Assembly (NCBI GenBank): GCA_017506865.1
Contig: JAFCMP010000096.1
Coordinates: forward strand, 62,001 to 126,000
Source: Tribonema minus
Taxonomy: Eukaryota; Sar; Xanthophyceae; Tribonematales; Tribonemataceae
Length of the DNA stretch: 64,000 nt
Reading direction: 5' to 3'
Each line of letters opens with the position of its first letter. Position 1 is the first letter of the stretch. Positions 1 to 61,157 of the stretch are shown piece by piece. The position numbers and the translations under genes were made by a program. The notes under the pieces are model-generated. The model searched no databases, was not told the origin of the DNA, and saw only the letters and a program-made list of their open reading frames with translations.

Positions 1-3000
1 GCAGGCGCACGCCGTACTGCGCCGTCTTCGCCGCCAGGGCCTCCCAGTCCGCCGCGTTGAAGCCGGAGCACGATGTCAGCGCACCGACGAGCGCTGTAAC
101 CGCCGACACCTGCGTTACAGTTACGGGATTTGAGTACATAAGGGTGCATCAGGGTTGGGGTGTGAGCAACACGCCTGGGCGAACGTGGCAGCAACTCCGC
201 CATAGGAGAACACAGCGCAGCATGCCTCAGCTGGTTAGCTGGGCCAACGCTGGGAGCACGGCACTGGCGCAGCGTTGGCGCAGCGCAGGCGAGCATCATG
301 GCGTAGCACGCAGCTGCGCCGCAGGCGCTGCCGACGTGCAGTGAGCGCAATTAGAACTTTAAAATGTGACATGCCTGCACTCACGGGCTCTACAGTACCC
401 TGATCTGGTCTCTGCGAAGAGGACATGCACAGTCTCATGTGACATCCTTTTTTGCCATAAAGTAGTCCTCCTTTGGGACATTAGTCAACTCAACTCAATT
501 TAACTCAAGCGCAGTCAAGGTAAGTACATAAACCCAGTCTCGGCTTGCCTTGCTCGCGCGCAAAAACATCAAAGCTCTGAACTGCAGCGCGTGACTCTCC
601 TGCGCGCGCACAACTTCAATACTGCCAAGTTCAGCGTGTGACTTGCCTGTGCGCGCGCCTCCGTGAGCTCGTCCTCGTAGAGTATGCACGCCTGGCTGAC
701 GAACTCGTAGGCAATCGCGGGGAAGCCCGCCCTGTCCGCAGCTGCGGAGCAGAGAGCGGCGCGCGGAAGGACAGGCACGTCACATGCTGACAGCATTCAG
801 GATTGTTGAAGTGGGAGTTGCAGGCGCGCCCGGAGGTGCGCGGCGGGCCAGCGTCATAATCTCGAACGATGTTCATGAGGCATCGGGCTACAGTTCAAGG
901 CGAACCTCAAGTGTGCGCGCTGATGCGTCTGCCGCACCAGCGTGCAATTGCGATGAGGCACATGCAGTTTAAGGGCGACTCTCCCTTTGCCCTGCAGGAC
1001 GACGGCAAAATGAGTTGAGCAACGGCAGCAGAACAAGACACGTGCATCAAACGCATATAGGGTTAGGGTTGGGCGCCACATCGCGGTGGACCAAGGGCTC
1101 TGCGCGGCGGCAGCGGTTGACGTGCCGCTGAGCGTCACCACGAGCGCTGCAAACTGCAACTTCGAAGTTGCAAGCGGCAGCGCTCACCTATGGCGCACTG
1201 CAGGAACAGCCGCAGCGACGCGGCGGGGAACATGGGCGCCATCGCCGTCACCGTCTCGTGCACAAACTGGAACATCTTGCGGCTGCCGTACTTGAGCGGC
1301 GACACCGCGGGTGCCGCCGCCGCCGCCGCCGCCTCTGCTGCCGCGGCGCCGTCTTCATCTGCACCTGGCGACGCTGCCGCCACCGTTGCCGCTTTTGCCG
1401 CCGCCACTGCCAGCACAGCCGCCGCCTGCGGGCTGCTCGCCGCCGCCGCTGCCGCAGGCGGCGTTGCCGGCGCAGGCGCTGCCGCCGCTGCTGCTTGCGC
1501 AGCCGGCGGCACAGCGGGAGATTCGAGCGCAGCTGCCGCCGCGCCGCCGCCGTCCGCCGCTTCCCCGTCCGCCGGCTGAGCCGCCTCCTCTGATGCAACT
1601 TCAACCATTGAAGTTGCAGGCGACGCCGTTTCTTGCTCCGCCTCTGCTGCGGCAGCGGCAGCGGCGCTGTGCGGGGAGCCGTGCGCATTTGCCGCAGTGA
1701 GCTCTGCAACGGCGGCGCCTTGCGTGCCGTCGCCATTGTCGTCGGCGGCGGCGGCCGCGGCGGGGGAGCGCGGCGGCGATGGGATGGGCGACGGTATGGT
1801 CTTGGGCTGCGGCGCCGCGGGCGTGCTGACGCCTGTCGTGTGAAACGGCAATGTCATTGGTGCTGGGCATTAGTGATAGCGTGTGCCCATGTGCAGGCCC
1901 TAGATGGTATGCGCTTGCTGGCAGCTGTCGACTGCGGCGACTTTGTTGGTATCAACTGGTGTACTTCAAGAACTTGTACTTTGCAGCACAAGTCATTTTG
2001 TGATGAAGTTGAGCTTGCACCGCGGGCCCTTTGGTGGCTTCGCGCTGTGTAGCGCAGGTTAGGGCATCAGACACGAAGTTGCGCACTCGTTGTTGTCAAT
2101 TGATATACTACAAGTACTTGTACTTTGCAGCGATCAGGCGCATGCAGGCCCAGCTGAGGCTCTCCTCGGGTGTAGCCTTGCTGCCCTACGCACACGCAGC
2201 AAATGAGCGCCTGTGACACGCTACGGCAGCGAGTCGTCGCGACAGAGTCTCGTCGAAAACGGGTGCAGCAACGAGAGCAGCGGCTCAACAGCGGTTGCAC
2301 AGCAATGTTTGTGGAGAACCGTTTCGCCGCTCACACCTCTACCGCTCGCCTCTTTTCGTCGCCGCCAGCGCCCACTGGCAGCTGCGTGTCAATGAATGAG
2401 CCACACTCTGAGCTGTGCCAAGGACCAGTCGGCGGCACCCCCTGCACAGGCTCAGGCGATCACGATGTACTCTACATCATCCCACATGGGCAGGAAGCTG
2501 CGCCGGACACCAGCAGATGACCCCAACCGCAAGTGGTACACAGCGCACTTGCTGCCCGAACTCTGCCTCACGCGCATTGAAGACGCAAAACTATACAGTG
2601 CTTGCCATTCTCGAAGACTGTCCCCCTTCTCAAGTTTCAACGCGTGTGAGGCAGAGTCGGGGCAGTAAGTGGGCCGTACACCACTTTTGGCCGGGGTCAT
2701 CGAAAATGGGCGCTGCGCGTCTTGCATTCGAGTACACATCGAGTACACAAGGCTCGCCTGCGGCTGTGAAGCGCGTGCCGCCGACTGATTGTGGGCATCG
2801 CTCGGCGCTGGTTTATTGACACGCAGCTGCCAGTGAACACTGGCGGCGATGAGAAGAGGCAAGCGGTGGAGATATGAGCGGCCAAATGTACCACTTGAAG
2901 TACGCGAATCATTTCTGTACAACGGCCTGCGTCACATTTGCAGCCGCACCTACGTCACCCAGCCTTGCGGAAGAAAGGCGCCATGTATGTGGGCGCTGTT

Positions 3001-6000
3001 CGCCAGTTGCGAGCAACTGCAAAGGCTGAGGAACACTGCTGTTACGCCGAAGTTAGCACATGCTCCATACATGCAAAACCGCATGTGCAGATGCGGCCTC
3101 CACCCCCGCACAACCGTGCATCAACAACAGACCCGCAAAAACACTGTTCTTTTGTGAGCGGCGTTAGCGGGCCTGCAAGAGCATCGGCGTACTGAGTATG
3201 CAGGCGCTCGTACATGTGATGTTGCAACTACAATTTAAAAGTTCAAGTGGAGACGCTCCATCACGAGCGGACACCCAACACACTCTGCAACACAGCAAAG
3301 GGCGCTGCCTCACCGCTGCCTCCGCCGCCGCCCGCGTCCGCGCGCTGCTGCGGCGCCGCCGCCGCCGCCTGCGGCGTCGCCGCGCCCGGCGGCGGCGACG
3401 GCAGCAGCAGCGGCGGCGGCGACGGCGCGGGCGGCGGTGGCGGCGCGGCGGCGGCGGCCAGCTCCACGCGCCGCGCCTCCTGCGCCAGCGCCAGCGCCGC
3501 AAAGACGAGCGGCACGAGGGTGTGGCGGATGCGCGTCTCACCGCCGCGTCCGAAGTGGCGGCGCACCGTCAGCATCACCTGAATGGCGCGCGGGGGGGGG
3601 GGGGGGGGGGGGCAGACGCAGCGCGCATGAAGTTTGGTGAGCGTACTTGTTGTGCAGGTGGTGCTGCTGCGGCACTTGCTGCCTGCAGCACGTCAAGTGG
3701 CGGCGGAAGCGCGCTGCGCCGCCGGAGCAGCGAAGGTGACGGACGGTGCACAGCGGAGGAATGCGCGCGGGGGGGGGGGGGGGGGGGTTGGGGGAGATCC
3801 AGGTCGGCGTAGAACACAGGCAGTTGCGTAGAGGGCACAACAGGCAGAGATCAGACAAGCTGCGCGTGTACACGGGCGTACCGTGCCAAGGCCCGCTACA
3901 CGTTACACAAGTCACTCGACCACCTATCCCTAACCCTAGCGTTAACCCTTGATGCGCGAGCGTCCAACCCTAACCCTAACCCTTAATGCGCGAGTGTCCA
4001 CTCCGCACACGCGACCCCCCCTCACCTCAAAGGCGGCGTCGGTGTCGTCGCGCGGTATGAGGTGCACGAGGCGCGCCGCCAGCTGCTGGTCCGCGACCAC
4101 GTCCTCCATGGCCGCGGTGCCCGCTGGCGGCGGCAGCGGCGGCATCGCCCCTGGGGGGACCGGGGGGTCCACCAGCAGGGGGGCCATCATGCCGAGAAGG
4201 CGATCCACCGTGTCAGGGTCGCTGCGCACGAGCGGCGACGGAGGCGCGCCACGCAGCGTGAGCACGGGACATGTATGCAGGTGTGTTGCATGTAGGAACG
4301 CAAGTGCGACCGCAGTGCAAGAGTACGTCATGTACCAGCAGCACGGCCACGGCCTGCCCACCGGTGCACTGCACTCAGGCCACTCGCATCAGACCTGCGT
4401 TCGACGTCTCCCCATGAGTTGCGTATGTTTACCATGCAAGGTCACGCCTGCCATGCAGCGCGCTAGCAGCCCTATCTGAGAGGCTCGCTGAGCGCGACTA
4501 CGGACGTCAGCAGCGTGCGCGCGACGACGGCGTGGCTTGTCTACACATGCGCTGTACTCAGGCTCATAAAAAAAGAAAGATCTCCATCATACAGGGTGAA
4601 CTTCATCATGCACCGCGCCATCTCAGTTACCTAAGGGGCTCGCTGAGCGCGACCACGGACGTCAGCAGCGCGCGCGCGACGACGGCGCGGCCCGCCCACG
4701 GCAGCAGCCCCAGCAGCGGCGCAAAGCGCTCCAGCGAGAGCGCCTGCGTGCCGAGCGAGCGCAGCGGCGCCAGCAGCAGCCGCTGCAGCGCGTCCACCGC
4801 CGCGTCGCTGAGCTGCGCGGCGAAGAGAGCGCGCGCGTCACCGGTTGAAGTTTCATTGAAGTGGAGCTCTGGTCGTCATATTGATGCGAGCGGCGCAGCA
4901 GCGTCACGAGATATGAAGGAGCGCCGGCGTGGTGGCCGTGCGCTGCGGGGGAACGTGATGGCAGCGCTCCGCCGGGCAGCAGCGCTCGACCACGCAGCAC
5001 AGCGCAGCGCAGAGCACTGACATAGTGCAGTGTCCGCGCATCACCATCCAGTAATCAGCAGAGGTGAGGCTCGTCAACAGCCACATGGGTGAGAGCATGC
5101 GCTGCACCGCTGCCTCGATCGTCGCTTTCGGAGCGTGTCGACTGCGACGGCGTCTGTCCGCGCATGCGTATTCATTGAACTGGAGCCTGGTCGTGGATGT
5201 TGATGCGCGCGGTGCTGCAGCGTCGCGGTTTATGAAGAGGCGCTGGCGTGGTGATGAGTGCACTGCGCGCGTGCATGATGACAGCGCTCCGCCACGCAGC
5301 AGCGCTCAGGTGCACAGCGCAGCGCAGCGCGCAGCACATTCAGAGTGCAGCGCCCAACAGCTGGGACCGTGCATCTGACGCCATCCAAGCAGTCGACGCC
5401 CGTTGCAGAGTCAAAGCTCTGTGCATGCAGAAAGTCCTACACGCTCTGTTCGGAAGTGCCCCCCTTCCGCAAGCTGAGCAATCGAATGCCTTCGACCGCG
5501 CGCACATGTGAGGCCAGAAGCGTCTTTATGGTGGGTTGAGCACCGCTGCGAGTGCATACCTGCGCGACCTGAGTGCGCTCGGCCACCGCCCGCGCCATCA
5601 CGCCAAAGCAGTGTTTGACGCAGGCGATCACGGTGCCGTTCCTGAACGTCTTTGCACAGTCTCTGCGCAACAAGTTCACCATGAACATTCAGGCCAGAGG
5701 CGCCTTGATTAGGTAGGTTGAGCACCGCTGCCAGTGCATACCTGCACGTCCTGCGTGCGCACGGCCACCGCCTGCGCTGCCACGCCAAGGCAGTGGTCGA
5801 CGTAGGCGATCGTGGACGGGTAGCAGCGCGACGCAAACTCCAGCAGCGAGCCCTGGGGGTCAACAAGGGCGAAGGGGAGAGGGAGGGGGGAGGGGGGAGG
5901 TGAGCACGGCGAATGCGGACACGGTGACCGGCGCGCCGTCGTCATCGTCAATATATCTAGATGTCTACGCTGGTGAGCTGCGCGCAAACTGCAGCAGCGA

Positions 6001-9000
6001 GACCTGGCAGTAGAAGCGCAAGGCGGCAGTGCGCAACACGGTTCGTGAAGCAGCGCGTGGTATCGTCTGGAATCCGGAAGAGCGCGCTGGGGTGGCGGGC
6101 TTCAGTGCTGGCGGCGCGCAAGAGCCGATCTGTGCGACTGATGCCACGGCAGTGTTATCGCGGCGCGCCGGAGGCGCGCACCGCAGCAAGCCTGCATGGC
6201 AGCAAGGGGCATATCTCGAGTACCTACACATGGGAAGCAGAAGTATACACTAACAAGAGCAAAAACGATTGCGGCGCATGCATACGAACGTGGCTGTCGC
6301 GGCACGCCACCGCCGCACTAAGACAAAGACTTATGCCTCAAAGCCTTGACGGGCACGAGTCCTTAGGGGAAGCAGAAGTATACACATCAACACAGAGAAG
6401 CTGCGCACCAAACGTAATTATTTATTGCGTATTTGGACAAAAACTATGCCTCAGACCCTCGGCAAGCATGAGCCCGCGAATTGAAAATAAAAACATGCGG
6501 CGCAATGCGCACCTGCAGCAGCACGATCTCCGCGAGGTCCATGCTGGGGCGCTCCTGTATGAGGCGCGCCACGCAGTCGTTGAGCTGCGTGAACGTGGAC
6601 GCGTCGCCGGGGAGCGCGGAACCGTCCGTCTGCAGCAGCGCTCAGCAGGAAAGACCGGGCGTACGAAGGGCCGCGTGAGTGGGGGCTGACGCCAGGGGGC
6701 GTACAGGAGTAGGACTGGGCGTTAGGACTAGGATCCAGTTGTACGGGGTTGGGACTAGGCGCCAGGAGGCACTGAAAAATCTGGACGATGCGGAACCGTC
6801 CGTCTGCAGCAGTGCTCAGCAGGAAAGACAGGGCAAGCGCGCGGCGCGTGAGAGCGGGATGACGCCAGGGGGTCTACAGGGCTAGGACTCGGCGTTAGGG
6901 TCACGGCCAGGACTGGACCTGTTGAACCCATGTGCAAGCCTGACCCTAACCTTTCACGAGCTGCAACGTAGCCAGCTGCTCATTGAAGCTGTCAAGTGAG
7001 CAAGGGCTGAAGAAACGCAACACTTTGTCCACGGTTAGAGAACACACCTGGAGGAGGGCTGCTGCCACCTGCAATGGCGGACGCAATGTTCATGATCGAT
7101 GGCTGCGCCAACAGTCAAGTCGCATGTAGACATGACATTGTATGGGTATGTATGTACGCATGATGCGCGTGATCAGCTCGATGGTTGATGCGTAGCAAGG
7201 CTGCGCAACACCGCTTTCCAACAAAGAAACTGCAGGGCAGAGAACGTCTGCCCTGGGCGCAGGCCATGGCCTTAGCAAAATGCAATTATGTTGAGTGTAG
7301 GCTTGCCACAATCTTATTGCACCGCTCTGCAGTTCCCGTTGCACACATGGGTGTGTGGCACGCCACCGCAATCCGAGGTTGAGCACTGGCCCCTGCAATA
7401 ATAATGGGATGTCCAAGTGTATTGGGGTAAAGTGCACGTCTTCGTTCTCGGATGAGGTGACTAGGTCCATACATGGGATGTGTCGTCAGTGACTCGTCAC
7501 ACAGCGTCGCACGACGCCTAACCCTACTCATTATCCTAATCCCACCCGTCACCCTCGGGCAGATCCTCCGCGCGAGACCCCCGCGCTGCACGTGCCATTG
7601 CAAATGCCAGCTTCAGTGTGCATGCGCCATACGAAGCCCAAACCTAGTTGTGATCCTAATCCTACCCCTGGCTGATCCCCCATGGAAAGAACTCCGTCGT
7701 ACTGCATGTGCCGTCAGCGTCAGTGGTTGCAGCCTCGTGAGCGCCCCTGCACCAGAAGGTGGACTTGGGGGCCTTGAGAACGAAGCTTCGGGACACAACC
7801 TCAAAGAGTACCCCTGTCCCACACGTATCTCCCCACCCTACCCTCAACCCTAACCCCAACCCAACACGACCGAACCCCCAAACCTAACCCTACCTAACAA
7901 ACCCGAACCCTACTCAAAACCTCTGCGTGGATCACGTCGCCGCACGCGGCGTTGTGAAGGCCAGCTGCAGTGTTCAGTACCCCTCAAGTATCCCTCTGAA
8001 TCATCAGCCACCTCCTGACTTTGTACATGATGACCAGCATGAGAGTGCCACTTCAAGAGCACCCCCCGCAACAGGGGGCTGCAACGTCTGCAACGCTCAG
8101 CGGGAGTGCTGCACGGCAATCTCACCTCCGCGTACTTGGACAGGCGCTGCATGAGGCTCTCCAGTATCAGGCGCACGCGCACTTTCTCCTGCACGCGCGC
8201 ACGAGTCATGACGCCGCTGTTCATCAGTCATCTTGGGTGCATGTCCAGGGAATGATGATTGGCAGTGCTTCAATGAGTACTGCTACGCACACACTAACTG
8301 CGTCCTGCACAAAGACCGCAGCTCAAACAAAACAAAACGGATACCTTGAAGCGACACAGAATTCTTAAAAGTCATTGAATGGACATCGCTCAACTTGATC
8401 CTAAAGTTAATGCTGACAACGATACATCAACATCATGGCTTTTAGGACGTCATTTCTGAGACCACAGCGGCACCCCCCTTTGAGCTGCGAGCACCCCGCC
8501 GCGCGTTGCACGCTGGCTCAACTTGCAGTTAGGGTTAGGGTCAGACTTGACTCTACTCCTAGCCCTAACCCCAACCCCAGAGGAAAATATGCATGATGAT
8601 GACGAAACTCCGTGCATCGAGGCTCGCCAGCAGCTGCAATGCATTTGCCTGCGCACGCTGACAGACAGTTGCAGCTGTCGACACCCATATGCACACTTTT
8701 TTTTTTTGCTGCGCACTAGACATTCTGGTCAAAGCGCGCACCAGTCAATATGGAAAACCTGTTTCAAATGGCGATGATTCTGTCTCAGGCGCCTGTCAAA
8801 GCATCTCAAGTTCCAATCCAACCAAATATGCAGCGACTGCGCTATGAAATAAAAAATGGGGGCCAGCGAGCGGCGGCTGCAACTTCAAACGACTTGACTC
8901 GAACAAGGTGACTCTGAGTCTGACCTTGAGCTTCAGCAGGCTCTCCAGGAACACCGGCAGCGCGTGGATGTGGAATTCGTCCGGGAAGCCCTGCGCAGCA

Positions 9001-12000
9001 GCAGCAGCGAGACGCGCATGCAATGAGCGCTGAGGCACACGGCGCACTGCATACCCACACGACTGATTATCAGTGTCATTTACAGTGGTGGGTACGCCCG
9101 ACTGATCAGTGTCATATGCAGTGGGATGTACTGTGCTTATCAGGTATGCTGTGCGATACATGGCGTACCACTACTTCCACGGCCTCCATGACCTGTCAAA
9201 TGCAGTTGCGTCAGGCAGGTGAGGTGTGTACGCGCATGGCTAGCACGGCGCCGCTAAAGACCGCATGCGTCACAGCAGCATGCATTGCGCGTTCGCCGGT
9301 TCCACACACGTTGTCGTTTATCAAAGTCAGGCGACCGACCGGCCCGAGCAGTGTGGCGCGTGAGCATTGACGCATTGGCGTCGCCGCAGTCTGAGCGCTG
9401 TGATGCCGGAGCGCTGACAAACGGGCATCCATCGCCACAGGGTAGCTGAGCGTTGCCAGGCCTGAGCACTGATGCAGTGCCGATCGCGACAGTCTGACCG
9501 CCGTGACGAGAGCACTGACGCCAGCACGTTGGCGTCGCCGCAGGGCAGCTGAGCGTTGCGACGCTTGAGCGCTGACGCACCGGCACCGCCGCCTGGGCAG
9601 ACGCGCGCCGCAACACATTGAGGCCGAGCTACAGGAGCCACCAGGGCAGCTAGGGTTGCGTGGCGCATCAAGGCGAGGAGAAACTTCAAGTTGCACTTTG
9701 CAGCGCATGGGGTCCTTCCTCAGCACGCGCGTCTTCAAACGCGAGCGCGATTCCTGCGTGCCACGCGTGCGCAAGCGCGAGCGTGATACCTGCCTGCCAC
9801 GCCACCGTCGGCGGCGGGCGAGCGGGCGCGCGACCACCACACCCCTCGTGTACTGTACCACTGAATCCCTCGTGTACTGTAGTGTACTGTACCTGTACGA
9901 TGCAGTCCATGAGGTAGCTCTGTGCGATGGTGTCGCGGCACGTCACCACCTGGTCGAGGACGCGCGGCAGCACGGCCGTCTGCGGGGGACGCAGGGGGAG
10001 GTAGGCGTCAGTGACATTCGTCAGGGAGAGCAGCAGCAGTGCTCAAGTCAAATTGTCTCACTCTAACCCTAACCCTAAGCGCCAGCGCCCAACTCGCCGC
10101 CAAGAAACGCCCCAGCGGCATCAGTCAGAGAGAAGAAATGTCCACGAGGTGCTGTGCTCCGCAAAGTCATGTAGTACAAACTCGTGTAGCACGGCCGTCT
10201 GCGGGCGGCGCAGCGGGGCAGCGGGGGCATAGGCATCCGTGACAATCGTCGGGAAGCGGAAACAGTCATCTAATGCGTGCTGCTGAAGGCGGGTAGCGCC
10301 AGGGAGAGAAAGCATTCATCTCATGCGCGCCGCTATGTCAAGCCGAGCGGTGCGGCTGTCTGCAGGCACGCCCCAGCGGCATCAGTCAGAGAGGAAATAC
10401 CAATAGGGGTGCTGCGCACCGCACAGTCATGCCGGGCGCAGCGGCGCAGGCGGCGTACACATCCGCGGCGTTTGTCAGGGAGAGGAACGCACGGTACCGC
10501 GTCGCGCGCCGCCACGTGGAGTGGCGGTTTCACTTGTCGAAGTACACATAATGCAGAAATGTATCCACGAGGCTGACCTTGTACGCGCATCCTTAAGTAT
10601 GCTCCAGTAAACATAAATGTTGGAGTACACATGATGGAGACACACACTGTCAGTGTATTGACGATGCTAAAAACGTGTATTCCACGATGCTGGCATTGTG
10701 CATCATCGAGTGTACTGTCCGTGGACGCACATGTTGGAGTACACATGGAGTACACACGTTGTAAAAGTGTATCCACAAGGCTGACCTTGTACATCTCAGC
10801 GTCCACGCCCTCCAGCTCGCTCAGGCGCTCCAGATTCGTGCCCACCAGCACCCGCAGATCTGCGCGCTCACAACGATACATACATACCAGGCGTCAGGCG
10901 CGACGCCAGGTGGCAGCGGGTCGCGTGAGACGCGCCACTGACAGTTGAAATTATGTGTCGGCGGTACATACATACCAGCGTCGACGTCAGGCGCAGAGCC
11001 AGGCAGCAGAGGGTGTGCAAGACGTGCAACCGGCACTAGCACCGGTACACAGACACCCGGCGTCAGGCGCGACATCAGGTCGGCAGCGGGTGACGCTGAC
11101 AGTTGAAGTTCTGCAACAGCGGAGCGTCACTCCTGCACCAGCTTTGGTCGGCAGGCTATGCACATCGGGCGACTGTGCTGTGTCCCTGCACACGGCAGCG
11201 CGGCGGGCGACTGAACACGCATCCAAGGGCAGGTAGGTATGTATGCCAATCAGGAGGCGCCGAGCCCCCGCCCCCCTATGAGACGGTGCCCATTGCTCGC
11301 TCCAGCTTTTGGATGAGGGCTAAGGTTAGCGCCATGCACACGCATCTAGTGGCGACGAGACGCACGCAGAGGCGCTGAGATCATGACGTTGAGTGAGTGA
11401 AACGCTGGCAGCGGCGGCGCGCGCAGGCGCCGAGGTCTACGTGCCATGTGCCGCCATCTCAACGCACAGCCACACTTGGTCTGCTCTGGTACACGCCGCA
11501 TGCGCACCGTCCGCCGCGGCACACGCGCGCGTGGAGAGTGGCATTGAGCACTGCCGCAGCGCCGCTAGGTGCGGACGCCGGTCGCACGCACGCTGACGCC
11601 ACGGTCGCAAGCCTCAGGAAGCCTGTGCCACGCGCCACATACGCGTCCACGACGTGGCGGCGCAAACACCGAACTTCAATGTTGAACTTCACTTGAACTG
11701 AGCCTACAACTGTCAAAGGCGACGCACCTCTTCTTCCCGCTCCCTGCGCCGCTTTCCTTGACGCCGCCATGCGCGCAACTTGTAAATAAACTGCAACTTG
11801 AATTTTGAAAAGCTCCACATCAGCAGGCCCAGCCTGCTGCCCAGGCCCGTTTTTGCGCTTCTGCATCCCTTTAAACCCAGCCCCCCCCGCGCGCAGTCAA
11901 CACAACTTCAACTTTGGGAGGTGACGCACCTTTTCTTTCCCGCTGCCTGCGCCTTTTTGTCCTTGACGGCGGCCTGCGCGCACCTTTAGATATTCAACAT

Positions 12001-15000
12001 TAAACTTTGATGTAATCTATACCAGGCGCGGCACCGCTCTTGAACTACTGCATCCCTACCCGCCACCGCACCCAAACACAACTTCAACTTCTGAGGTGAC
12101 GCACCTCTTCTTTCACGCTCCCTGCGCCTTTTGTCCTTGACGGCGGCCTGCGCGTGCATGCGCACCCACAGGCGATTCGACTCCGCAAAGTTCTCCAGCA
12201 CAAACTCCAGGCAGTCGCTCACGCTGCGCGCAGAAAGGCCGTTTCGCAAGCGAATACGTGCAGGTCGTGCTATCAGCTGAGCATTGACGCGGTTAGCAGG
12301 CGCGCCTTTGAATTGTTCAAGCTCTACGGTGGCTGCGGAGCGCACGGATGCGCATGAAGCGCGTGCCGTCAGCTGTGCGGGTGCGGCGGTTGCACTTGCG
12401 CTGACGAATGTATGTGGCGTCAGCGGAGTTCAGGGCCTGCCCCAATTGAAGCCAAGAGCCGAGGCCTGCTGCTTCCGCAGCTGGCACCAATGCACGGTGC
12501 GAACACCTATGCTGGGGTTGCATTTTGAGGCCAGTCATAAACGCCAGTCATTTTTCTAATTGGCCATCTCAAATCGCGGACCCCTCTCCCCTTCTTACTT
12601 TTGTACCGCAAATGTTGGACCCCGTGCATAACATCAAACAAGACGGAACTCAAACTTTCAAAGAGGCACTACTTCTATGTGATAACCAACTCTTCTCGGT
12701 GGTGGGATGTCATGTGAGAACCAAGCATATGCACACGATGCAAGCGCAAAATAGGGACTTCTCAAGAGCGCCTTCATGCATGCTCACCTGCCCCCCTCCC
12801 CCTCATACGGCGTCCCCGTGTCCGGCAGCTTGTCCTTGGTGACCTGGCTCAGGTAGAAGCGCAGGAACAGCCCGCGCATCGGCTGCTGCACCCCCTTGGC
12901 CATCTCCAGCAGGTCGCTGAGCACTGCATGCGCCGGCGCCTGGAAGGCAGCGTTCAACATCAATGACACGGGTGTTAAACTCCCGGCCGCATGAGATGCC
13001 AGAACACACAACAGCTAGCGCGTCGCTTGGTGATCATCATGCTTCAATGCAGGAGTCGGGCAGGCCGAACAACGGCCGTGCTCGCAGAAGAGCACGGCCC
13101 GCGCCGGCGCCTGCAGGCAGCGCTCAGGAACAATGACGCGTGCGCGTCAATCTCCCGCATGAGAGGCCGAAACACGCAAGAGCTGGCGCATTGCTTACGT
13201 ACGACACGGTCATCATGCCTTGATGTAGAGCCCGTGGGCAGGCTGCAGCAGCCATGCTCACGTCAGAGGCCGTCACCACGCGATGCACCTGAGCCAGTCC
13301 AATCAGCCTCTGCATGCCTATGCCCAGATTATTCAGCAAGATATGGAGCTTTCACGTGCACTGCGCGCATGGCGCGATCTGACTGCAGAGGGTACGCACG
13401 GGTTGATGGCTTACCTCGCCAGACCTGATGTAGCAGCTGCCCACAGTGCACAGCAGGTACAGCCGCGGCAGCACCTGCGCACAGGCTGCGAGAAGCAAAG
13501 CGGCACCAGACGGCGAAGCATTAATGACACCGCAGCATCCTTTGGTTAAACACCTGAACAACACCTTGAAGTTGTAAACTTTTGAAGTACATCACTTGAA
13601 GTTGTTTCCGCGTGCTCGAGGCACTGAGCAGGCGAGAAGCATTGTGGGCCGCAGCAGCGCTCGCCGACCGTCGGTGGAGCGCTGCAGCGTCATAGAGCGC
13701 ATGAGAGCACAGTACTTCTGGAAGTCCATAGATGCAGTTCGCAACTTGAAGTTCAAGTTGTAGCTACCCTACCTCACGCACACTGCGCACGCAATAGCCG
13801 ATTCAGCCATGCAGACGCGTGCTGCACACCTAGCTACCCCAGCTGCGCACCCCGCGCACGAACTTGCGACAGCCATACGAAACGAACGCATTGCGCGGCG
13901 GGCTGAGGGTGTGGCGTGCCGCACTGCAGGCCGCGCGCGCTGCTGTACCTGCTCAAACTTCCTGCCGCAGTCTCGTGAGGTTGAGTTCCGAGACGCCGTC
14001 AACAGCTCACGCCAGGCAGCACATGCCGCCGCTGGTCTTTCGATGCTCGTTTACAGACTCGCTCGGATGCGCCGCGCAGGGCGACAGCGCGCTGCTCTGG
14101 TAACTTTCCCGACACCTCTACTTCGCTGAAGATTCTAAAGGGCTAAAGGATCGATAGGCCATGCTTTTGCAGTGTGTACTCATACTGAAAATTAACTTCA
14201 AGTTGGTTACCTTGACTGAGCGCTGCCTCACCTTGCACGTGCTCGTACAGCTGCACCATGGGCGTCCCCTTCGCGTTGAGGACCAGGAAGAACTCCTCCA
14301 GGTAGCGCAGCTGCGCCGCTACCTGCGGCGACGGCGACGACGCACGCGCGCGCAGCAGCAGCGCTCAGCTGATGCGTCGCTCCAGCAGTGCTCATCAGTG
14401 GTCAGCGCTCAGCTCCCCGTGTGCAGCACGCAGCAGCGCTCAGGTGCAACGCCGACAGATGAGCGTTGCTGCCTTAGAGCATAGCATGGTGCGCATGGTG
14501 TCCACCGAGGGCCGCCCGACGCAAAACGCATCTCGGGAGCGTTGCTGCCGCAGTGCACTGCTCGGCGTGTTGTACACACTGCGTGGTGGGCCAAACAGGA
14601 CCACGCCGACCGCGCAACAGCGCACCTCGAGAGCAGCCGCAATCTGCCTACAGCGGCAGCGCAGCAACTGACACGAGCACACGTAACAGGCGGCATTCCC
14701 TCACCTGCAGGTAGAGCTCAAAGTACGTCTTGGGAGCCAGCGTCGCGACCTTGAGCTCTGCGCGGCGGCACGACAGACGGCGCAGTCGCGACAATCAGCG
14801 GCGCCGGCAGCACGTGGAGCGTTGCTATGACGATGCCGTCCGATCACAACTTGAAAGTCCCCAGAGAATCCAGCGCTTGGCACCCCCGCCGACTAGAGGG
14901 CTTGACGACACCACATAGACGGTAGCGAGAGCAGAGCGAAGTAGCGGCAGCGGCGGGAGCGCTGTTTAGGTGATGAATGTGCCGGCTGTTGGCATATGAC

Positions 15001-28429: not shown

Positions 28430-28441
28430 ATCGGTTGTCAC

Positions 28442-29521: not shown

Positions 29522-29574
29522 GTACTATCGGTTGTCACAGTGTCACCGTGAACCTCAGGCCCGACGCCTAGTAG

Positions 29575-29680: not shown

Positions 29681-29711
29681 ACTAGTACTAGTAGTCTACT
29701 ACTAGCACTTA

Positions 29712-44400: not shown

Positions 44401-47400
44401 AAACAGATACCCGATTCTAGGAAGCTCCAAGCTGCTATTGTAAATTCTACCCAAACGGAACTAGAATCACACAACCCTAGAAGACAGCGGCCGCACTTTT
44501 GCCTCCTCCGCCTTGCGCTCGCTCTGTCTCGAGTGTCTTCAACCCCAGTTTGCTTCACTAAGGTGATAAGTGGCTATTCGCAAAGGCGCCGGAGTGGTCC
44601 GCCTCCAGCTGCTATGGCTCGAATCGCCTTACTGGCGTCATCAATACCTCTCTTTATGAAAGCCTAAGTCGATTTTAAGTTGATCACCAAGCCTCAGCCA
44701 CATTCAGCCCAGCTCTGATAGAAAGCGGTCTCACTGGTCCTCGCCTTCCTTCAGCTCCTTCTGCATCAGTTCTCCAGGTGATCAATTAAAATGTCAATGA
44801 TTGGAAGCAACTTAGTAACTTGAAGTTCACCCTACCCAGCCCCAGCTTCAACCCCAAAACTAGCAGAGTACGGTCTCATTTGTCCTCCTCCGCCTTGCGC
44901 TCCATCTCCCAGCTTCTTCTGCATCAGTTCACCTTATTGGGGTGATCTTCAAGTCCAGGATTTGACTGCGTCCACTTAGTAACTTCAAGTTCAACCCAGC
45001 AACCCTAGTAGAGAGCGGTCTCTCACTTGTCCTCCTCCGCCTTGCGCTCGGCCTCGAGCTTCTTCTGCCTGATGCCCGCAATGCGCAGTGATTAAACTTC
45101 AACTCAGCAACTTCAACGTAACCCTCACAGCCCATGTTAGCAGATAGCGGTCTCACTTGTCCTCCTCCGCCTTGCGCTCGGCCTCGAGCTTCTTCTGCCT
45201 GATGCCCGCGATGCGCAGTGATTGAACTTCAACTCAGCAACTTCAACGTAACCCTCACAGCCCATGTTAGCAGATAGCGGCCTCACTTGTCCTCCTCCGC
45301 CTTGCGCTCCGCCTCGAGCTTCTTCTGCCTGATGCCCGCAATGCGCAGCCGCTCCTGCTCCTCCCGCTTCTCCTTCTCTATCAGGTCCTCCTCCTCGTCC
45401 GCAAACTTGCCATTCGCGTCCGCCACCTGCATGGCACAAGAGCCCAATATCACACATTATGGCCGCTGTCGGAGGGGTGTGTGTGTGTGGGGGGGGTGCA
45501 GTGCCACGAGACGCGTTGAGAACAAACAGCACGCAAAATCAGTGCTGCCGCAAAGTGTTGAGGCATGCCTATCAGCAGCAGAGTTGCCAAGAGTGCCGTG
45601 TACTCCAGACGCGTGGTGTACTGCAGGAGTGAGCGCAATTCGTGTTGTGTGACGCCGCTGCTGTTGAGGTAAGCTGCCAGGCTGTCTCATGAAGTACTGC
45701 TCGTGCCATTGCGTAGCAGACATTGGTCGGCTTCTCCGCGTGACCGCTGCATTCATAGCACCTCCTGCGGTCTCGTTACAGCGCAGTTGACCTCAGCGTC
45801 ACCGAAGGCAGAGCCGATCCGTCCAGTGAACACGTGAGCGCCGCTGGAACCAGCACACAGACGCAGTCACCAGCACACGATCCCGGCCACAGTGCGCAGG
45901 CCCAGCAAACCTCAAATGTGAAGTATTTGCGCGCCAGCGCCAGGAACAAAGCGGCAGCACACCGAGAACACGCGACCGCCAACACAGCGGCAGCAAACCG
46001 ACTTGCATGTGACCGCAGCATGAGCCAGCAGACAGATGCATTCGCCAGCACACAATCCCTGGCCCCTTGTGCGCAGGCCCAGTGACCTTGACCGTGAAGA
46101 GCTTCACTGCTCCAGGTGCGCTGGAAGTGCATTTTGCCCTGTGCGTACGCAGCAGGTGTGGGCCAACTCGCCGATGGTCCACAGCCTCCGCCACTCAAGT
46201 TTCGTGCCACCCGACTGTGGACCGGCACCCTGATTGATCTTGGCCGAGCATGCACACCGCACCAACACACACACACACACACGCGCGCATGCACCTGCGC
46301 TGCAGCGCTCCTCGACTTTTATCACAAAGGGGCATGCGCGCACGGGGACTAGCGCTGCAGCTCACCTTGAGTGAGCCCAGCATGTCTCCGATGTCCGCTG
46401 ATTCCCAGTCATCGGCAGCCTCCTCCCAGTCATCGACAGCATCCTCGCCGCCCTCCTGCGCCTCCTCTTCCGGCGCCTGCTTGACGGTTTCGTCAGTTAC
46501 AGACTGTTCCTCGGGTGGCGCCGACTCCCTCTGTGACGCCTCTTCCTCGGTGGAGTCTGCCATGGCGGCGGTGGCGCCCTTGCCCTGGACAACGGTGACA
46601 AGGCGGTGAGCAACAGTTAAACTGCGGTACATACATTGGGCGGGGCCGCATGTAAGCGCTGTTTCTAAGCAGTGACCGTCCCCACACTTGAGGGGAGTGT
46701 TGACTGAGAACAAAGCTAGACAGTTGGCACGTCACATACTTGAAGTGAGAGGAACCATGATGCCCCTTCAAAGAGGCGGGCTCTCAGCTGAGAGCGCTGT
46801 GTTCCCGTTGCGCGACAGCAGCTGACAACCCACAAGCAGACGGCTGCTGCGCTTGCACTTGACAGTGGTCCAGCAGTTGAAGAACAAACATCAACATACA
46901 ACTTCATCATGGTTGTGGAACACCTTTCGGTCGCAGCTTCAAGACATCAGTGGGCCCATCGCATATGGTCCAGTGCCACCGCATGTAAGCACTAGCGGCC
47001 CACATGACAATGGCCTTGCGGGACACGTGCACAGCGCTCGTCGACTCTCTGAGACTTGAAGTTGAACTTCACCTTGCCCTTCTTGCCCTTCTTGTCATAG
47101 GTAGCCCGCGCCGCGCCGCCGCCCCCCGACGGCACCTCGAGACCCGCAGCGGCCATCGCCTCCAGCGCCGCGCGCGCGCGCGCCTCCTGCTCCTTCTGCT
47201 TCTTGGTCTTGTACGTGCCCTCCGCCTTGGCCTTGGCCTTCTTCTCATCGGCGCGCCGCTTCTTTTCGGCCTTCTCCTCCGCGATCCTGCAGTTCAGAGG
47301 GCATTGCCAGACGCAGTCAGTTGAAGCACAGGAGGCGCTGCTGGTTTGCAGATGCAAGTGGCCACATGTTACGGCGACGCCTTCACTATTTTGAATGGGG

Positions 47401-53928: not shown

Positions 53929-53957
53929 GGGCATACTTTTGTGTTGTAGAAATTGTA

Positions 53958-54008
53958 TAGATTGCAGCCGCTGCTGCGGCTACTGCCAGCAGCTTTTACA
54001 CGGCTTGA
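53958..54008 (+). repeat. Copy of the methyltransferase C-terminal end including stop
   Basis: About 30-80 bases after the real stop codon (53926-53928) the terminal coding text recurs in diverged form, with CAGCAGCTTTTACACRGC followed by a stop. It resembles the exon-edge copies seen at splice junctions, but here the edge is the end of the coding region. Confidence 0.75.
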
Positions 54009-56135
54009 GTGAGAGCAATTGTGGCTGTCCTGTGAGTAGTGAAGTTACCCATTCAAGTTGGTGTTTGAGAGCAGTCGTTTTGTGTGAGTGGTAGACTGTT
54101 GGCACCTGCAGAGCTGACGTAGCTGTGTGTTGCAAGTGAAGTGTTTTGTGTTGCAGGTCAAGTTTGTGCAGAACAGTATCACCCACCCCATGATCTCAGA
54201 GGTTTACATGTGACATCAACTGATGCACACGGCACATCCTCAATGTATACATGTGGTGTGACTTTGTCGAGGAGCTCTTCTTCCTGTTTGAACTCCGCTG
54301 TTGATGCTGCTGTGAGTATAGCACTCTGACGGTGCAATGAAGATCATATGTATGAAGTTTTATTTGGTGCTGCCATCTCACTGCAATGATTCAGTGACAA
54401 CGCTTGTGATGATGGCGTTTGCATGCTTTATAGCAAGGCGTACACGTCATAAGTACTCCGCAACATGCTTGTGTCACATTGCGACTTCAGTCATATCATT
54501 GGGCATGATAGGCCACCACAGCGAGCTACATGCTTCTCAGCTGGCGGAACTTGTCAGCACCTGCTTCTCATGGTTTGACTGTGAATGCAAGTTCGGAAGA
54601 CCCAAAGCAATCCTAACAAACAGGTTAGTTTGGTGGCCATCATCTGCTTCGGAATGGCACCACAACCACAGGGAGCAATGCTGTTCGTGAAGAACAAACA
54701 GGTTAGTTTGGTGGCCATCATCTGCTTCGGAATGGCACCACAACCACAGGGAGCAATGCTGTTCGTGAAGATTGTCATTTCAAAACTGCATGGTCAAGAT
54801 TGGTGCGTCTTCTTTTGTCATCAGTGATGAGCACATCACAAGCGACACAGGCCCAGGACCTCACGCCATTGCTTCAAGGCTTGCCAAGGTACACCGCTGT
54901 AGAGGTTTGACAACCTGATACCGGTGCTGTAGCAATCAAGTGCCCTTCTCATCGCAGTTCCCTAGTGTAAACATGTCTCTCACATGCGCTCTAGGCAGTG
55001 CTAGTAGGCATCTCAATAGGCCATACCGTCAAGCCCTGTCCATGAGACGCGGTTGCTGATGCCATCATGCCCGTCCAAGAGCAGCACCCTGCAGTTGCCG
55101 AATTTGACGCCTCTAACCGTCATGACAAGTGCCCAAGGACTTCATGGCATGGCAACCCCTCGCATGTACGACAGGCGTTCAGCCTGACGCGAACGCTGAT
55201 GTGGTGGGGCACAGTGTCACGCTGCTGCGGCACTCTGCCGAATCTGGCACCGTGACCGCCACTGCTTGTTGCCAATTCCGTCAGGCTGCCACACTGCTGG
55301 TCGCTTGGCAGAGAGCAACAGCGGCTTCTCTTATGCGCATGCATTTCATTGAAGGGGGCCTCCTCGTGCTCGCGCAGCAGCTCGCTGACGAGGGTCGTGG
55401 GATCACCTGCAGGCCGTGCATGCTGCAGCATCCCCAGAAATGCTCGCACGCCGGGTTCAGTATCCATGTGTGCGCGGTCTTCAACAAAACCTCCATCTTG
55501 CTGGGGGCACGAGCGCTGGCTGCACTGCGGTAGCAGGGCTCCAAGCCAAGCGAGCTGGTGTCGCCCTGCAAAAATCCACACAGGTGCAGCTGAAGGCCTA
55601 GTCAACCTCCGTCGCTTACCACAAGCCAGTGGCATTCACTCGATCCTTCCTTCATCCACCGCTACGTCTGCAACGCGCCTGCGCGATGGCCTGCGCGACG
55701 CTGCACACCCACAAGCACCTGGCAGCCCTGGCTGTACGGTTAAAGAACGCGTCAGTCTGCGGCCAGCACCAGCTTGAATCGCCACGTCGGTTCACCTATC
55801 GCTGTTTTAGCCCGAACACCTTTCGGCTCGGATGAAAACAAAAGTTCAAACCTCTGGGAAACTTCAACTTTCAGACCTGAGAAAAAAACCAAGCGCTGGC
55901 ACAGAGAGTGAGCCTCGTGAGCTATAGCCATGGCCGACTCTGCTGGCAGCGGAGAACCCTCAGGAATTGGCATCACTGCGAGCCCGCCGGGCGCAAATTG
56001 CTGCCGAGCTATGCGCCGTGGATGCGAAGCTGCAGGAGCTGGCCCGGCAACCTTAGCACAGTGAGAAGCGCGCTGCGCTGAACCTGTGTGCCAGTGGCTC
56101 TGCCGACTCCGCGCCGGGCGACGGCGGGAGGATGA
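54009..56135. other. Intergenic region, methyltransferase to LRR copy 2
   Basis: About 2.1 kb with no recognised gene. It contains the 78-base perfect tandem repeat listed separately. Two moderately long open frames at about 55120-55635 lie on opposite strands and match no family I know. From about 56000 the sequence begins to resemble the upstream flank of LRR copy 1. Confidence 0.45.
54615..54770. repeat. Perfect 78-base tandem duplication
   Basis: 54615-54692 and 54693-54770 are identical. The unit is 26 codons long, so open frames on either strand pass through both copies. Complete identity indicates a very recent duplication. Confidence 0.95.
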
Positions 56136-57758
56136 ATGCTGGCGATGCTGGTGACGTTGGCGGAGCCGGAGAGGGGGCGTCTCAGTTGCAGAAGCGCAGG
56201 CATTGGCGGGGAGAGCTTGGACATGCTCACACAGGTGTTCACGGTGCTGGCGCAAAATCGTATGCTGCCCAAGCCGGCGTGGGACCTGTGCACGGCTATG
56301 CACCAAAAGGTCAGACCCGTCGTACGCCTGATTGTAGCAGACACCTATGCACCAGCTGCAGCGGCGCATGCCCGGATCTTTTTCAGCAAAATTGCCGTGC
56401 ACCTCGAACTGTGTGGGGTGCACGACATCGACCCGCTGGTCGCCTTGACTCTGCGCCCTGTCGGAGCCGGCGTCGGCAGTGTCGATCATGGGCACTTGGA
56501 CAGGTTCGACTTCTTCAAAGATGTCAGCATAATGACCCTGACGGACTTCTGTGAGATGTTCACGCGCATGCCGCGGTCGCTGCAGGAAGTGCGCATGGTA
56601 CAGTGTGAGACCAAAAGAGCGCGGCCGATGCTGCGCACAGCGATTCGCGCCACAGACGACGGCTTCCAGGCAGATGCACTACCGCTTGTACGACCCCTTG
56701 CTCCCACCAAAAGAGCAGCAAGCCTGCCGGACGACTTTGGTGCTCTGTCGGCACTGACAGATTGCGACCTACATGGCTGTGAGTATCTCACAAGACTGCC
56801 GGACTGCATCAGCAATCTGAGCGGGCTGACCAGGCTTTATGCGAGATACTGCAGTAGGTTACTTAGTCTGCCGGCATGCATAGGTAGCCTGCCGGCGTTA
56901 GCGACGCTTGACCTGACCCGCTGTTACAGTCTTAGTAGCCTGCCTGATAGCATCGGCGGCCTGGCAGCGCTGACGGATCTCAACCTGAGCGGCTGCACAA
57001 TAACCACTAGGCTGCCGGACAGCATCGGCAATCTGGTTTCACTCAAAAGCCTCAACCTCAGCGCCTGCACATCACTCTTTGGGCTGCCCGACAGCATCGG
57101 TAACCTCGCTTTGTTAACGGCGCTGAACATGTGCGACTGCACGGTGTTCTACAATTGTCCGAGCAGCATTGGCAACCTGGCAGCGCTGGCAAAGCTAGAC
57201 TTGGGCAACTGCGACACGCTTTCCAGTCTCCCGGAGAGCATTGGCGGCCTGACCGCGTTAACATGGCTGAACCTAAGCGGGCTTACGGTCCTGCGTAGGT
57301 TGCCAAACAGTATTGGCCATCTGGTATCGCTAGCCAAGCTCAATATGATGTGTTGTCGCACTCTCAAGAGTCTGCCGGAGAGTATCGGCGCCCTTGCAGC
57401 GCTGACGTACCTGTGCCTAGCAAAATGCAAGCGTCTCACCAGTCTGCCGGATTCCATAGGCGCGCTGCGGTCTCTGAAGGTTCTTGACTTGGCTGAGTGC
57501 GAAGCACTGACAGCACTGCCGGACTCCATCGGCGACTTGTCGGCACTGTCACAGCTCAGGCTACGCAGCTGCATGCGCCTGTCGGAACTGCCAGTCTGCC
57601 TGGGGGAACTGGCGCAGCTCACATTGCTAGACTTGTCGTTCTGCAGTCAACTCGCGAGCCTGCCGGACACGCTTGGCAAGCTGGCACTGTTGACAAAGAT
57701 ACACACAGACGGGTGCCGAGAGCGCCTGACTCAGTCTGCCAAAGCGCTTCAGCAGTAG
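56136..57758 (+). CDS. Leucine-rich-repeat protein, copy 2
   Basis: A single open frame of 540 residues. An N-terminal region of about 190 residues contains GIGGESLDMLTQVFTVLAQ, VADTYAPAAAAHARIFFSK and MPRSLQEVRMVQCETKR and matches no domain I can name. From about residue 195 to 525 run some 13 LRRs of 24 residues, LPDSIGxLxALxxLxLxxCxxL, the plant-type/Ras-group consensus; Cys or Gly at the end of most strands is typical. No signal peptide or membrane segment is visible, so it is probably intracellular. No introns. The reading frame upstream of 56136 differs between the two paralogues, so the true start is uncertain. Roles of this class range from scaffolding to recognition; none is shown here. 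Confidence 0.8.
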   Translation: MLAMLVTLAEPERGRLSCRSAGIGGESLDMLTQVFTVLAQNRMLPKPAWDLCTAMHQKVRPVVRLIVADTYAPAAAAHARIFFSKIAVHLELCGVHDIDPLVALTLRPVGAGVGSVDHGHLDRFDFFKDVSIMTLTDFCEMFTRMPRSLQEVRMVQCETKRARPMLRTAIRATDDGFQADALPLVRPLAPTKRAASLPDDFGALSALTDCDLHGCEYLTRLPDCISNLSGLTRLYARYCSRLLSLPACIGSLPALATLDLTRCYSLSSLPDSIGGLAALTDLNLSGCTITTRLPDSIGNLVSLKSLNLSACTSLFGLPDSIGNLALLTALNMCDCTVFYNCPSSIGNLAALAKLDLGNCDTLSSLPESIGGLTALTWLNLSGLTVLRRLPNSIGHLVSLAKLNMMCCRTLKSLPESIGALAALTYLCLAKCKRLTSLPDSIGALRSLKVLDLAECEALTALPDSIGDLSALSQLRLRSCMRLSELPVCLGELAQLTLLDLSFCSQLASLPDTLGKLALLTKIHTDGCRERLTQSAKALQQ

Positions 57759-58941: not shown

Positions 58942-61157
58942 ATGGCGACGTTCGCTGCTTCTCTGAACCGTGACTCCAAGGACCTGCGAGAACATATCAG
59001 CGCGGGCCCACAGACCTCCACCCAGTTTGCGGCAGAAAATTTCAGCGACTGCGAGGTGAGATTCTCTCTCGGACCATTTTGGTCTTGATGAGTACAGCGT
59101 GTCCATCTGGCAAAGCAGCCGAAGCTGACAATGTCAATCATTTTCTCCCTAGCGTAATGTGTCGACTGGCAAATCGACAAGCTGGCAGCGTGCATGCGCT
59201 TGCGCGGGGGAGCCCAATGACTGCTTCGCATTTGCATGTCATGTACGAGCGCCAGGCTTCTTGACAGATCAGTTCAACCGTCAATCTATGCGGTGGTGCA
59301 ATGCGACGCGTTCAAACGCTACAGGAACAACGAGGCTGCAGGCATTTTGACATCTTCAAGTCATGCCAATTATTGCGCTCGTCCAGCATGTGATGAGACG
59401 TGAAGCAGCCAATCGTCCGCTTTGTAGCCGCGCTTCCAAGTACCTTGCATGTGCCTTTCAGAGAACGCGCTGCCTGCGCCGCTCATTCTGTTGTCCGTCT
59501 TCACAAGCGTCAGAGCACCGCCTGTGACGCCGCTTGCCTGCACGCTCTCTTAGAGGCAGTAGGTCACTGGTGGCCGCGCCGGTACACTGGTGGCCGCGCC
59601 GGTACCTGTTTTATCAGCTCTCTGTCGCAGCGTAAAGTCGACAAATCACCTCCCCCTGTCTCACGCGCCATCACCATACTCACAACTACACACACCTACA
59701 TGCACACACACCGCAAGGCAGCGGACGGTCTCACGCAGCCCTCGCTGCCGCTGCCGCTGCCGCTGCCGCTGCCGCCACGCGCGCAGCTGCTGAGCGATGA
59801 GCAAAAGGCGCGGCTCAAGCCAGTGCTGATGGAGCTCGCGAAGCAGAACGCGACGCTGGACCAGGCGGTGAGCACCATGGTCGACGCGGCCAAGAAGTTT
59901 GACGAGCGCGTGCAGGCGCTGGCGCGCGCGCGGCGGATGCGGCAGCAGCAGCGCGCGGCGGCGGCGGGCGGCGGCGAGGATGGCGACAATCCGGTGAGCG
60001 CCCAGGGACCCGCGGCGCGCGCGGCGACAAGCAGCAGCATGACCCGTTTGAAGTTGCAGCAAGGCCATTTGAAGTTGCTGGTGGATGGTTAGGGGTTGAA
60101 GAAATGAGGTCTGTCCTGACTCTGGGTGTGCTGCGGCAGTTGCGGGCGTTGTGCGGTTGTGTTGTAGGTGGTGTGAGTGATCATGGCTGTGTGTGGGATT
60201 GTGGTGCAGGTTGCAGCAGGCACTTGTGTTGACTTGCACTGGCTGAGGCATACTCGTAAGGATAGCATAGCGGGACGGCGTTGGTGCATGCGCGGCTCTC
60301 AACACAAGGCGGTGCTGCCGCAGGAGGCCTGCTTGTTGGTGCAGCATGGACGGTCCGCAAGCATCGGAGGCGTGCACTGGGGCCTTGCGGCAGCGCACAC
60401 GTGTGCAGCGCACAGCACACCACGCAAGTAGTGGAGGTCCCAATGCGGTGCGCTGTATGCAACGTTTGGCAAACCTCTTGGGCAGCGATGGTAGCACGAA
60501 GCCCGCAACGACACGCGAACTCTGCGGTGGCCACCGTTTTCTCTGATGATCGTCAGTACATGCTGTGATCCTTGTGTGCTCTACAGCACCAACGAAAACT
60601 GAAGTTTTAATGTCCAGATGAAAAAGTCCACGATTAGTTTATTGTCATGAGCGCGCAAAGTGAGGTTGGCCTCGCGTGGTGCTCACCGAGGTCCGCATCG
60701 CTGCAAGAGCGCGCCTCACATCCGGCTGCGTAACGTGTCACACCGCTTTAAATTTAACACTCTTCAGGCCACATCTGCAACCCCACCCTCACTCTGCTCT
60801 AATCCTCATCTCAAGGCCGAGGAGGGGGACTTCAATGCCCAATGTTTGGGGAAGATGAACGCAAGGCGATGGTCAGCACTGATAAATAATTCTGACCCTG
60901 ACCCAAAGGCCCTCAGCCCTGACGTAACCTCAACTTCAACTCTGGCTCTCCTTCCGAAGGCCGAGGAGGACGTCGACTTCAACGCCATGTTCGAGGAGGA
61001 GATGGCCAAGGCGACGGACGCCGCTGCCGGCGTCGACCCCAAGCAGCACAACATGTACAAGGACGTGATGAAGATAGTGGGCGAGGAGGAGGAGGAGGGC
61101 GGCGACAGCGATGACGACGTGGCGATAGACAGGACCAGGGGCGAGGTCAACCTCAAG
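58942..61157 (+). CDS. NSE2/MMS21-like SUMO ligase, N-terminal part (C-terminal exon outside window)
   Basis: Exons 58942-59055, 59787-59993 and 60960-61157 are all phase 0 and give 173 residues before the frame continues past a GTGCGT donor. Exon 1 (MATFAASLNRDSKDLREHI) and exon 2 (EQKARLKPVLMELAKQNATL...) form amphipathic, probably coiled-coil helices. Exon 3 has VDFNAMFEEEMAKA, an acidic linker, then DDDVAIDRTRGEVNLK. In NSE2, a coiled-coil arm that binds SMC5 is followed by an acidic linker and a Glu/Asp-Ile-x-x-x strand just before the CPIT of the SP-RING; this arrangement and the length up to that point agree. The SP-RING itself was not found before 64000, so identity rests on the N-terminal pattern. 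The fossil retroelement lies in the following intron. Confidence 0.5.
59563..59603. repeat. Short tandem repeat, two 20-base units
   Basis: CACTGGTGGCCGCGCCGGTA occurs twice in a row in intron 1 of the NSE2-like gene. Confidence 0.85.
60809..60875 (+). repeat. Decayed copy of NSE2-like exon 3 5' edge
   Basis: About 145 bases before exon 3 (start 60960) its acceptor and first 50 or so bases recur: AAGGCCGAGGAGG, then GACTTCAATGCC against GACTTCAACGCC, and AAGGCGATGG against AAGGCGACGG. The copy is direct. Confidence 0.82.

What the first reader, a model, noticed from the sequence alone, without database searches (positions are those of the whole stretch)
1..61157. Introns built from decaying copies of their own exon edges
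In VPS35, RPS17, eIF5B and the NSE2-like gene, and at the coding end of the methyltransferase, introns or flanks contain direct copies of the adjacent exon edge with its splice site. I count about 18 junctions with one to five copies each. Both 5' and 3' splice junctions are affected; copies keep orientation, lie on the intron side and generally lose similarity with distance. This suggests that introns here grow by repeated tandem duplication anchored at splice junctions, leaving decoy GT or AG sites. I know of intron gain by tandem duplication of AGGT sites, but not of such graded chains as a genome-wide habit; novelty is unverified.
Basis: partly seen in the sequence, partly recalled or inferred. 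Interest (0 to 1): 0.9.

Follow-up and report, generated by a model that had tools for sequence, protein, structure and literature searches.

The report
Introns holding decayed exon-edge copies
In this unidentified eukaryote about a third of the mapped exon-intron borders have, inside the adjoining intron, one to five worn tandem copies of the exon's own edge, often with its splice site, so introns here seem to grow by repeated local duplication while the real exon edge stays as a fixed original.

Summary
Confirmed in substance. I mapped 56 splice junctions in VPS35, RPS17/eS17 and eIF5B by homology. Similar stretches 40-1000 nt apart are direct (65) and never inverted (0) with a low-complexity filter. 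In the three genes they form 25 arrays, merged by hand; 18 include a junction. In 17 of 24 copies the exon match reaches the junction exactly; 14 of 21 5' copies keep GT, 7 of 8 3' copies keep AG. Within arrays nearer copies resemble the exon more (p=0.00035). Copies drift like non-coding DNA.

"Anchored at splice junctions" is not needed: unanchored duplication with frozen exons, simulated, gives 57-63% junction arrays against 72% seen, and an uninterrupted ORF has a copy at its stop codon. I read it as frequent tandem duplication, mostly 110-220 nt, made visible and graded because the exon edge stays constant.

Two features exceed this model. No copy reaches deeper than 75 nt into its exon (p about 3e-5, hand-collected, post hoc). 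In two arrays exon edges are identical although their flanks are old, suggesting re-copying.

One window only; no genome, relative or RNA was available.

The parts
3509..3787 (-). VPS35: array at a 3' splice junction (exon starts at 3578), unit about 176
   Evidence: direct HSP 68%, only (low-complexity filter off); junction
4452..4691 (-). VPS35: array at a 5' junction (exon end 4631), unit 155; exon part 56/61, flank not alignable
4803..5355 (-). VPS35: array at a 3' junction (exon start 4812), unit 317, only about 10 nt of exon
5504..5811 (-). VPS35: array at a 5' junction (exon end 5742), unit 181, about 70 nt of exon
6616..6899 (-). VPS35: array at a 3' junction (exon start 6629), unit 174, about 14 nt of exon
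9969..10431 (-). VPS35: array at a 3' junction (exon start 9979), unit 219; two HSP pairs merged
10541..10792 (-). VPS35: array at a 5' junction (exon end 10786), unit 208, 7 nt of exon
11704..12154 (-). VPS35: two copies of the exon end 12105 with GTGCGT, spacings 175 and 202
12919..13297 (-). VPS35: array at a 3' junction (exon start 12939), unit 171
24277..24531 (+). RPS17/eS17 exon whose 3' edge is copied
   Evidence: PDB eS17 E 1.4e-45; edges
24466..25391 (+). RPS17 exon edge and intron copies at 24632-24700 (61/66), 24839-24882 (37/46), 25327-25391 (46/66)
34781..35472 (-). eIF5B intron 11: four copies of the exon end 35406, exon identity 63/66, 52/55, 34/39, 53/67; flanks pair alternately
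38345..38950 (-). eIF5B intron 8: four copies of the exon end 38885
39095..39517 (-). eIF5B intron 7, 3' side: two copies of the exon start 39139; the nearer keeps C-tract and AG, the farther has lost AG
39616..40208 (-). eIF5B intron 7, 5' side: two copies of the exon end 40134
40324..40792 (-). eIF5B intron 6, 3' side: two copies of the exon start 40382 (65/69 and 49/63)
40980..41324 (-). eIF5B intron 6, 5' side: two copies of the exon end 41259
41464..41767 (-). eIF5B intron 5, 3' side: two strong copies of the exon start 41504 with pyrimidine tract and AG (two further weak hits in the same intron)
44447..45348 (-). eIF5B intron 4: five copies of the exon end 45287 (60/62, 61/62, 39/43, 17/24, 35/44)
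1945..2131 (.). array without a mapped junction, unit 144 (gene model incomplete here)
7514..7976 (.). array without a mapped junction, unit 360 (gene model incomplete here)
9359..9593 (.). array inside VPS35 intron 7, unit 148, no junction
10864..11122 (.). array at the 3' end of VPS35 intron 5, unit 169, starting 5 nt from the junction
37578..37779 (.). array at the 5' end of eIF5B intron 9, unit 110, 19 nt from the junction
43220..44509 (.). array inside eIF5B intron 4, unit 641, 87% identity, no junction
45831..46099 (.). array inside eIF5B intron 3, unit 175, no junction
   Evidence: score 55, shuffle maximum 29
61276..61341 (+). weaker copy of the exon end of the same gene
   Evidence: score 42, shuffle maximum 29
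53967..54009 (+). copy of the stop-codon end of the uninterrupted methyltransferase ORF 52648-53928
   Evidence: score 46, shuffle maximum 32; repeated; Pfam Methyltransf_20

Best explanation
Introns in these genes grow by ordinary local tandem duplication (units mostly 110-220 nt, head to tail) at a high rate. When a duplicated unit spans a splice junction, the outer junction, contiguous with the exon body, goes on being used and the inner copy falls into the intron. The real exon edge is held constant by selection on the protein; the copies drift. Each new junction-spanning duplication pushes older copies away, which gives a graded chain of decaying exon edges with decoy splice sites. Chains are seen mainly at exon edges because the frozen original keeps them recognisable, not because splicing directs the duplication. 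Two additions are inferred: exon edges are sometimes re-copied onto neighbouring copies (gene conversion or unequal exchange inside the arrays), and duplications reaching deeper than about 75 nt into an exon are lost, perhaps because a longer fragment would be recognised as an exon. Shown: direct orientation, unit size, junction inclusion, gradient within arrays, non-coding drift of copies, depth ceiling in this window. Inferred: duplication at DNA level, use of the outer junction, the two additions.
For: 65 direct and 0 inverted nearby HSPs with the low-complexity filter, 44 of the direct ones in the three genes. 18 of 25 arrays include a junction and none contains a whole mapped exon, 5.7 expected. 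Units median 171 nt, 22 of 25 in 110-220. In 8 arrays at 5' junctions, where the intron flanks of a unit are still clearly alignable (17 of 46 pairs), original-to-copy divergence is 0.073 in the exon part and 0.222 in the flank (8 pairs), copy-to-copy 0.184 and 0.244 (9 pairs), as expected if only the original is constrained. Copies drift as non-coding DNA: mismatches 31/32/46 by codon position (p=0.14), 65 nonsynonymous, 43 synonymous, 1 stop, 5 of 24 frameshifted. Gradient p=0.00035. A simulation with no anchoring reproduces the share of junction arrays. A copy at a stop codon without a splice site. Re-copying: eIF5B intron 4 copies 1 and 2 have exon parts 50/50 but flanks 45/68 (p=5e-7); in intron 11 the original and copy 1 are 50/50 in the exon part with unrelated flanks, while flanks pair original~copy 2 and copy 1~copy 3 (p=2e-4).
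Against: The depth ceiling of 75 nt is not explained; the simulation's own depth read-out was faulty (values longer than an exon) and was not used. In 27 of 46 unit pairs no flank homology is detectable although exon parts are still 57-100% identical, which plain whole-unit duplication does not predict without re-copying or rearrangement. Without the low-complexity filter one search also lists 6 inverted matches within 100 nt, against 47 direct ones within 1600 nt. No RNA, no second species.
Confidence: 0.68

Rival explanations
1. Duplication is really directed to splice junctions, for example by breaks made during transcription-coupled splicing or by chromatin at exon edges, so that introns lengthen from their ends.
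For: 18 of 25 arrays include a junction, 11.4 expected by random placement, p=0.004; exon depth never above 75 nt and 13 of 18 between 41 and 75, 4.8 expected; two further intron-only arrays begin 5 and 19 nt from a junction (coordinates).
Against: Single-HSP rotation is not significant (p=0.087, and p=0.61 for distinct junctions); an unanchored simulation gives 57-63% junction arrays, not different from 72%; seven arrays without a mapped junction; tandem duplications also outside the mapped genes (27802-28431, 54615-54771); a copy at a stop codon.
Confidence: 0.15
2. The copies are alternative or mutually exclusive exons or splice regulators under selection.
For: Exon parts better preserved than flanks relative to the original; 11 of 21 5' copies and 6 of 8 3' copies score above the 95th percentile of intronic GT/AG, and 6 and 1 reach their own real site.
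Against: The aligned copies carry one exon edge each; mismatches near-even over codon positions, 65 nonsynonymous against 43 synonymous, 5 of 24 frameshifted; 7 of 21 5' copies lack GT and mean decoy scores are below the real ones (4.3 against 8.2; 6.9 against 9.2); copy-to-copy divergence is similar in exon part and flank.
Confidence: 0.08
3. The introns are introners or other mobile elements that multiplied and carry exon pieces.
For: Introners are reported from about 5% of species searched, disproportionately aquatic (PMC9860276: abstract start and passages seen).
Against: Introns share almost no sequence: 4 weak cross-intron HSPs among 25 introns at E up to 0.01; no nearby inverted HSPs with the filter; the ten strong edges match no other intron comparably.
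Confidence: 0.02
4. Chance similarity of low-complexity GC-rich sequence, or an assembly artefact.
For: GC 0.51-0.63 and many short repeats; the reverse-complement control exceeds shuffles in 6 of 44 edges.
Against: Ten of 44 edges score 66-116 where controls stay at or below 40; copies are diverged to different degrees, which misassembly would not be expected to make.
Confidence: 0.03

Closest known systems
Intron gain by a tandem duplication that crosses an intron-exon boundary: potato RdRp gene (Ma, Lan and Niu 2016, PMC4974935; passages seen, abstract among them)
   Same: A tandem duplication spans a 3' splice junction and part of the former exon becomes intron.
   Different: One event in one gene, and it makes a new intron. 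Here existing introns lengthen, at 18 of 56 junctions of both kinds, in chains of up to five copies graded by similarity.
Tandem genomic duplication of an AGGT-bearing exon segment as intron gain (Rogers 1989, Hellsten 2011, as described in passages of PMC3443670 and PMC4974935; the originals were not seen)
   Same: Tandem duplication supplies duplicated splice sites.
   Different: There the duplicated segment is exonic and the two AGGT copies become the ends of a new intron. Here the unit straddles an existing junction and no new intron is evident.
Short direct repeats near intron borders (Rogers and Bendich 2025, PMC11782384; abstract and first part of Results seen)
   Same: Direct repeats close to splice sites.
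   Different: Those are 4-30 bp, pair the 5' border region with the 3' border region and are read as insertion footprints. Here the exon-edge part alone is 31-75 nt in the 24 copies, and the chain lies at one junction.
Introner elements (PMC9860276, PMC7789003; passages seen)
   Same: Repeated sequence inside introns of protists.
   Different: Introners are dispersed families with shared sequence; here repeats are local and private to each junction.
Minisatellites spanning an exon-intron boundary (recalled, no call)
   Same: Tandem array that includes a splice site.
   Different: Recalled as isolated polymorphic loci; here it is common within one 64-kb window and the copies are mostly diverged.

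Membership tests
[quoted passage not shown] the copies become 5' and 3' ends of one new intron | tested here: not met
   in the 5' junctions among the 11 edges, copies of an exon end lie inside the intron followed by their donor region, not at the intron's 3' end
[quoted passage not shown]
   no usable relative or genome
Junction-spanning tandem duplication (potato RdRp type) | tandem unit includes part of an intron and part of the adjoining exon | tested here: met
   18 of 25 arrays; alignments through the junction
Junction-spanning tandem duplication (potato RdRp type) | a new intron is spliced from the duplicated region | not testable with these tools
   no RNA
Introner elements | sequence shared between introns at many loci | tested here: not met
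   4 weak cross-intron HSPs among 25 introns; one window only
Introner elements | terminal inverted repeats or target-site duplications in many families | tested here: inconclusive
   no nearby inverted HSPs at E up to 0.01 with the filter; short terminal repeats or target duplications were not sought
Tandem-repeat (minisatellite) array | head-to-tail copies of one unit | tested here: met
Alternative or cassette exons | copy under coding constraint | tested here: not met
   codon positions 31/32/46, 5 of 24 frameshifted
Alternative or cassette exons | copy included in RNA | not testable with these tools
   no RNA

The most novel reading that the evidence does not exclude
This lineage has a standing process by which introns lengthen at their ends: junction-spanning tandem duplications of roughly nucleosome length are accepted only when they take less than about 75 nt of exon, and the frozen exon edge then acts as an immortal template that re-copies itself onto its intronic neighbours by gene conversion. 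Introns thereby keep decoy splice sites, some as strong as the real ones, so that splice-site choice must rest partly on something else, such as a minimum exon length.
Probability: 0.25. Interest if true: 0.85.

Novelty: new variant of a known kind. Interest (0 to 1): 0.6.

Why it matters
How introns get long is commonly put down to transposons or left open (recalled). Here growth steps are preserved in rough order inside single introns, so rate, unit size, limits and splice-site competition could be read from one genome. The chains are also a natural experiment in splicing: 6 of 21 5' copies and 1 of 8 3' copies score at least as well as the true site beside the same exon edge, yet the homology-based gene models skip them. 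A limit of about 75 nt of exon per copy, if it holds genome-wide, might measure the shortest exon fragment that the machinery treats as an exon.

Tried and rejected
Pfam scans with stops read as X gave no family for the three plus frames of 1-15 kb and the six frames of 15-24 kb, at E up to 0.01. Searches for relatives: one eIF5B exon, the RPS17 exon and the methyltransferase in viral contigs gave none; the RPS17 exon in prokaryote genomes gave two archaeal homologues and one 16-residue match in a bacterial bin; eIF5B DNA against phages, near mode only, none. Taxon: not determined; CCTAAC repeats are compatible with several groups (recalled). Introner, cassette-exon and chance explanations were tested and set aside. 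A nucleosome origin of the unit length was considered: spacings run 95-383 with median 171 for arrays, suggestive but not tested. Introns with junction arrays are not significantly longer: median 932 nt (12) against 660 nt (13), p=0.10. Anchoring tests disagree: single-HSP rotation 20 of 44 against 13.9 (p=0.087) and 12 junctions against 12.5 (p=0.61); array placement 18 of 25 against 11.4 (p=0.004). The lists of 56 junctions differ in one member each. The depth output of the simulation was faulty and was dropped. Arrays and units were merged and entered by hand; exon depths by hand, with one exon length (300) assumed; the mean depth alone departs less (50.3 against 69.1, p=0.026). Young duplications show 1-2 bp of microhomology in 4 of 5 examined; the fifth (33171) gave no usable value.
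Full report
What the window is. The window is eukaryotic DNA, 51-63% GC in 4-kb steps, with three intron-rich housekeeping genes: VPS35 on the minus strand (Pfam Vps35 E 7e-43, 2.5e-26 and 1.5e-9 in three frames; PDB), RPS17/eS17 on the plus strand and eIF5B on the minus strand (E 2.6e-73). Exon ends were placed by homology, GT-AG and reading phase; some VPS35 exons remain unmapped. This gave 25 mapped introns and 56 junctions. No whole genome is held and no close relative was found, so everything below rests on one window.

Noticed in passing
window, 44 sites, e.g. 45095, 45109, 45225, 45239, 13566, 13596: The octamer AACTTCAA/TTGAAGTT occurs 44 times (about 0.8 expected for both by base composition) and in none of 5191 mapped exon bases. 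Dispersed non-coding motif, unexplained.
   Followed up: partly
window, 31 sites, e.g. 42579-42724, 4961, 13117, 34719: GCAGCGCTC/GAGCGCTGC occurs 31 times (about 1 expected), 21 in mapped introns and none in mapped exons.
   Followed up: partly
window 49560-51222 and 56136-57758: Two leucine-rich-repeat coding regions with direct repeats at 216-nt steps.
   Followed up: no
window 43220-44509: Inside eIF5B intron 4 a 641-nt unit is tandemly duplicated at 87% identity, apart from most of the exon-edge copies.
   Followed up: no
window 27802-28431 and 28553-29195: Young tandem duplications of about 314 and 330 nt outside the mapped genes; parts of the first recur near 29571-29754.
   Followed up: partly
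window 645-646 (minus strand): A VPS35 exon ending at 647 appears to be followed by a GC donor (GCAAGT); the donors of the 25 mapped introns are GT.
   Followed up: no
window 25548-25572, 3932-4000, 7840-7910: Short interstitial telomere-like repeats (CCTAAC at 25548, related units at the other two) within genes.
   Followed up: no
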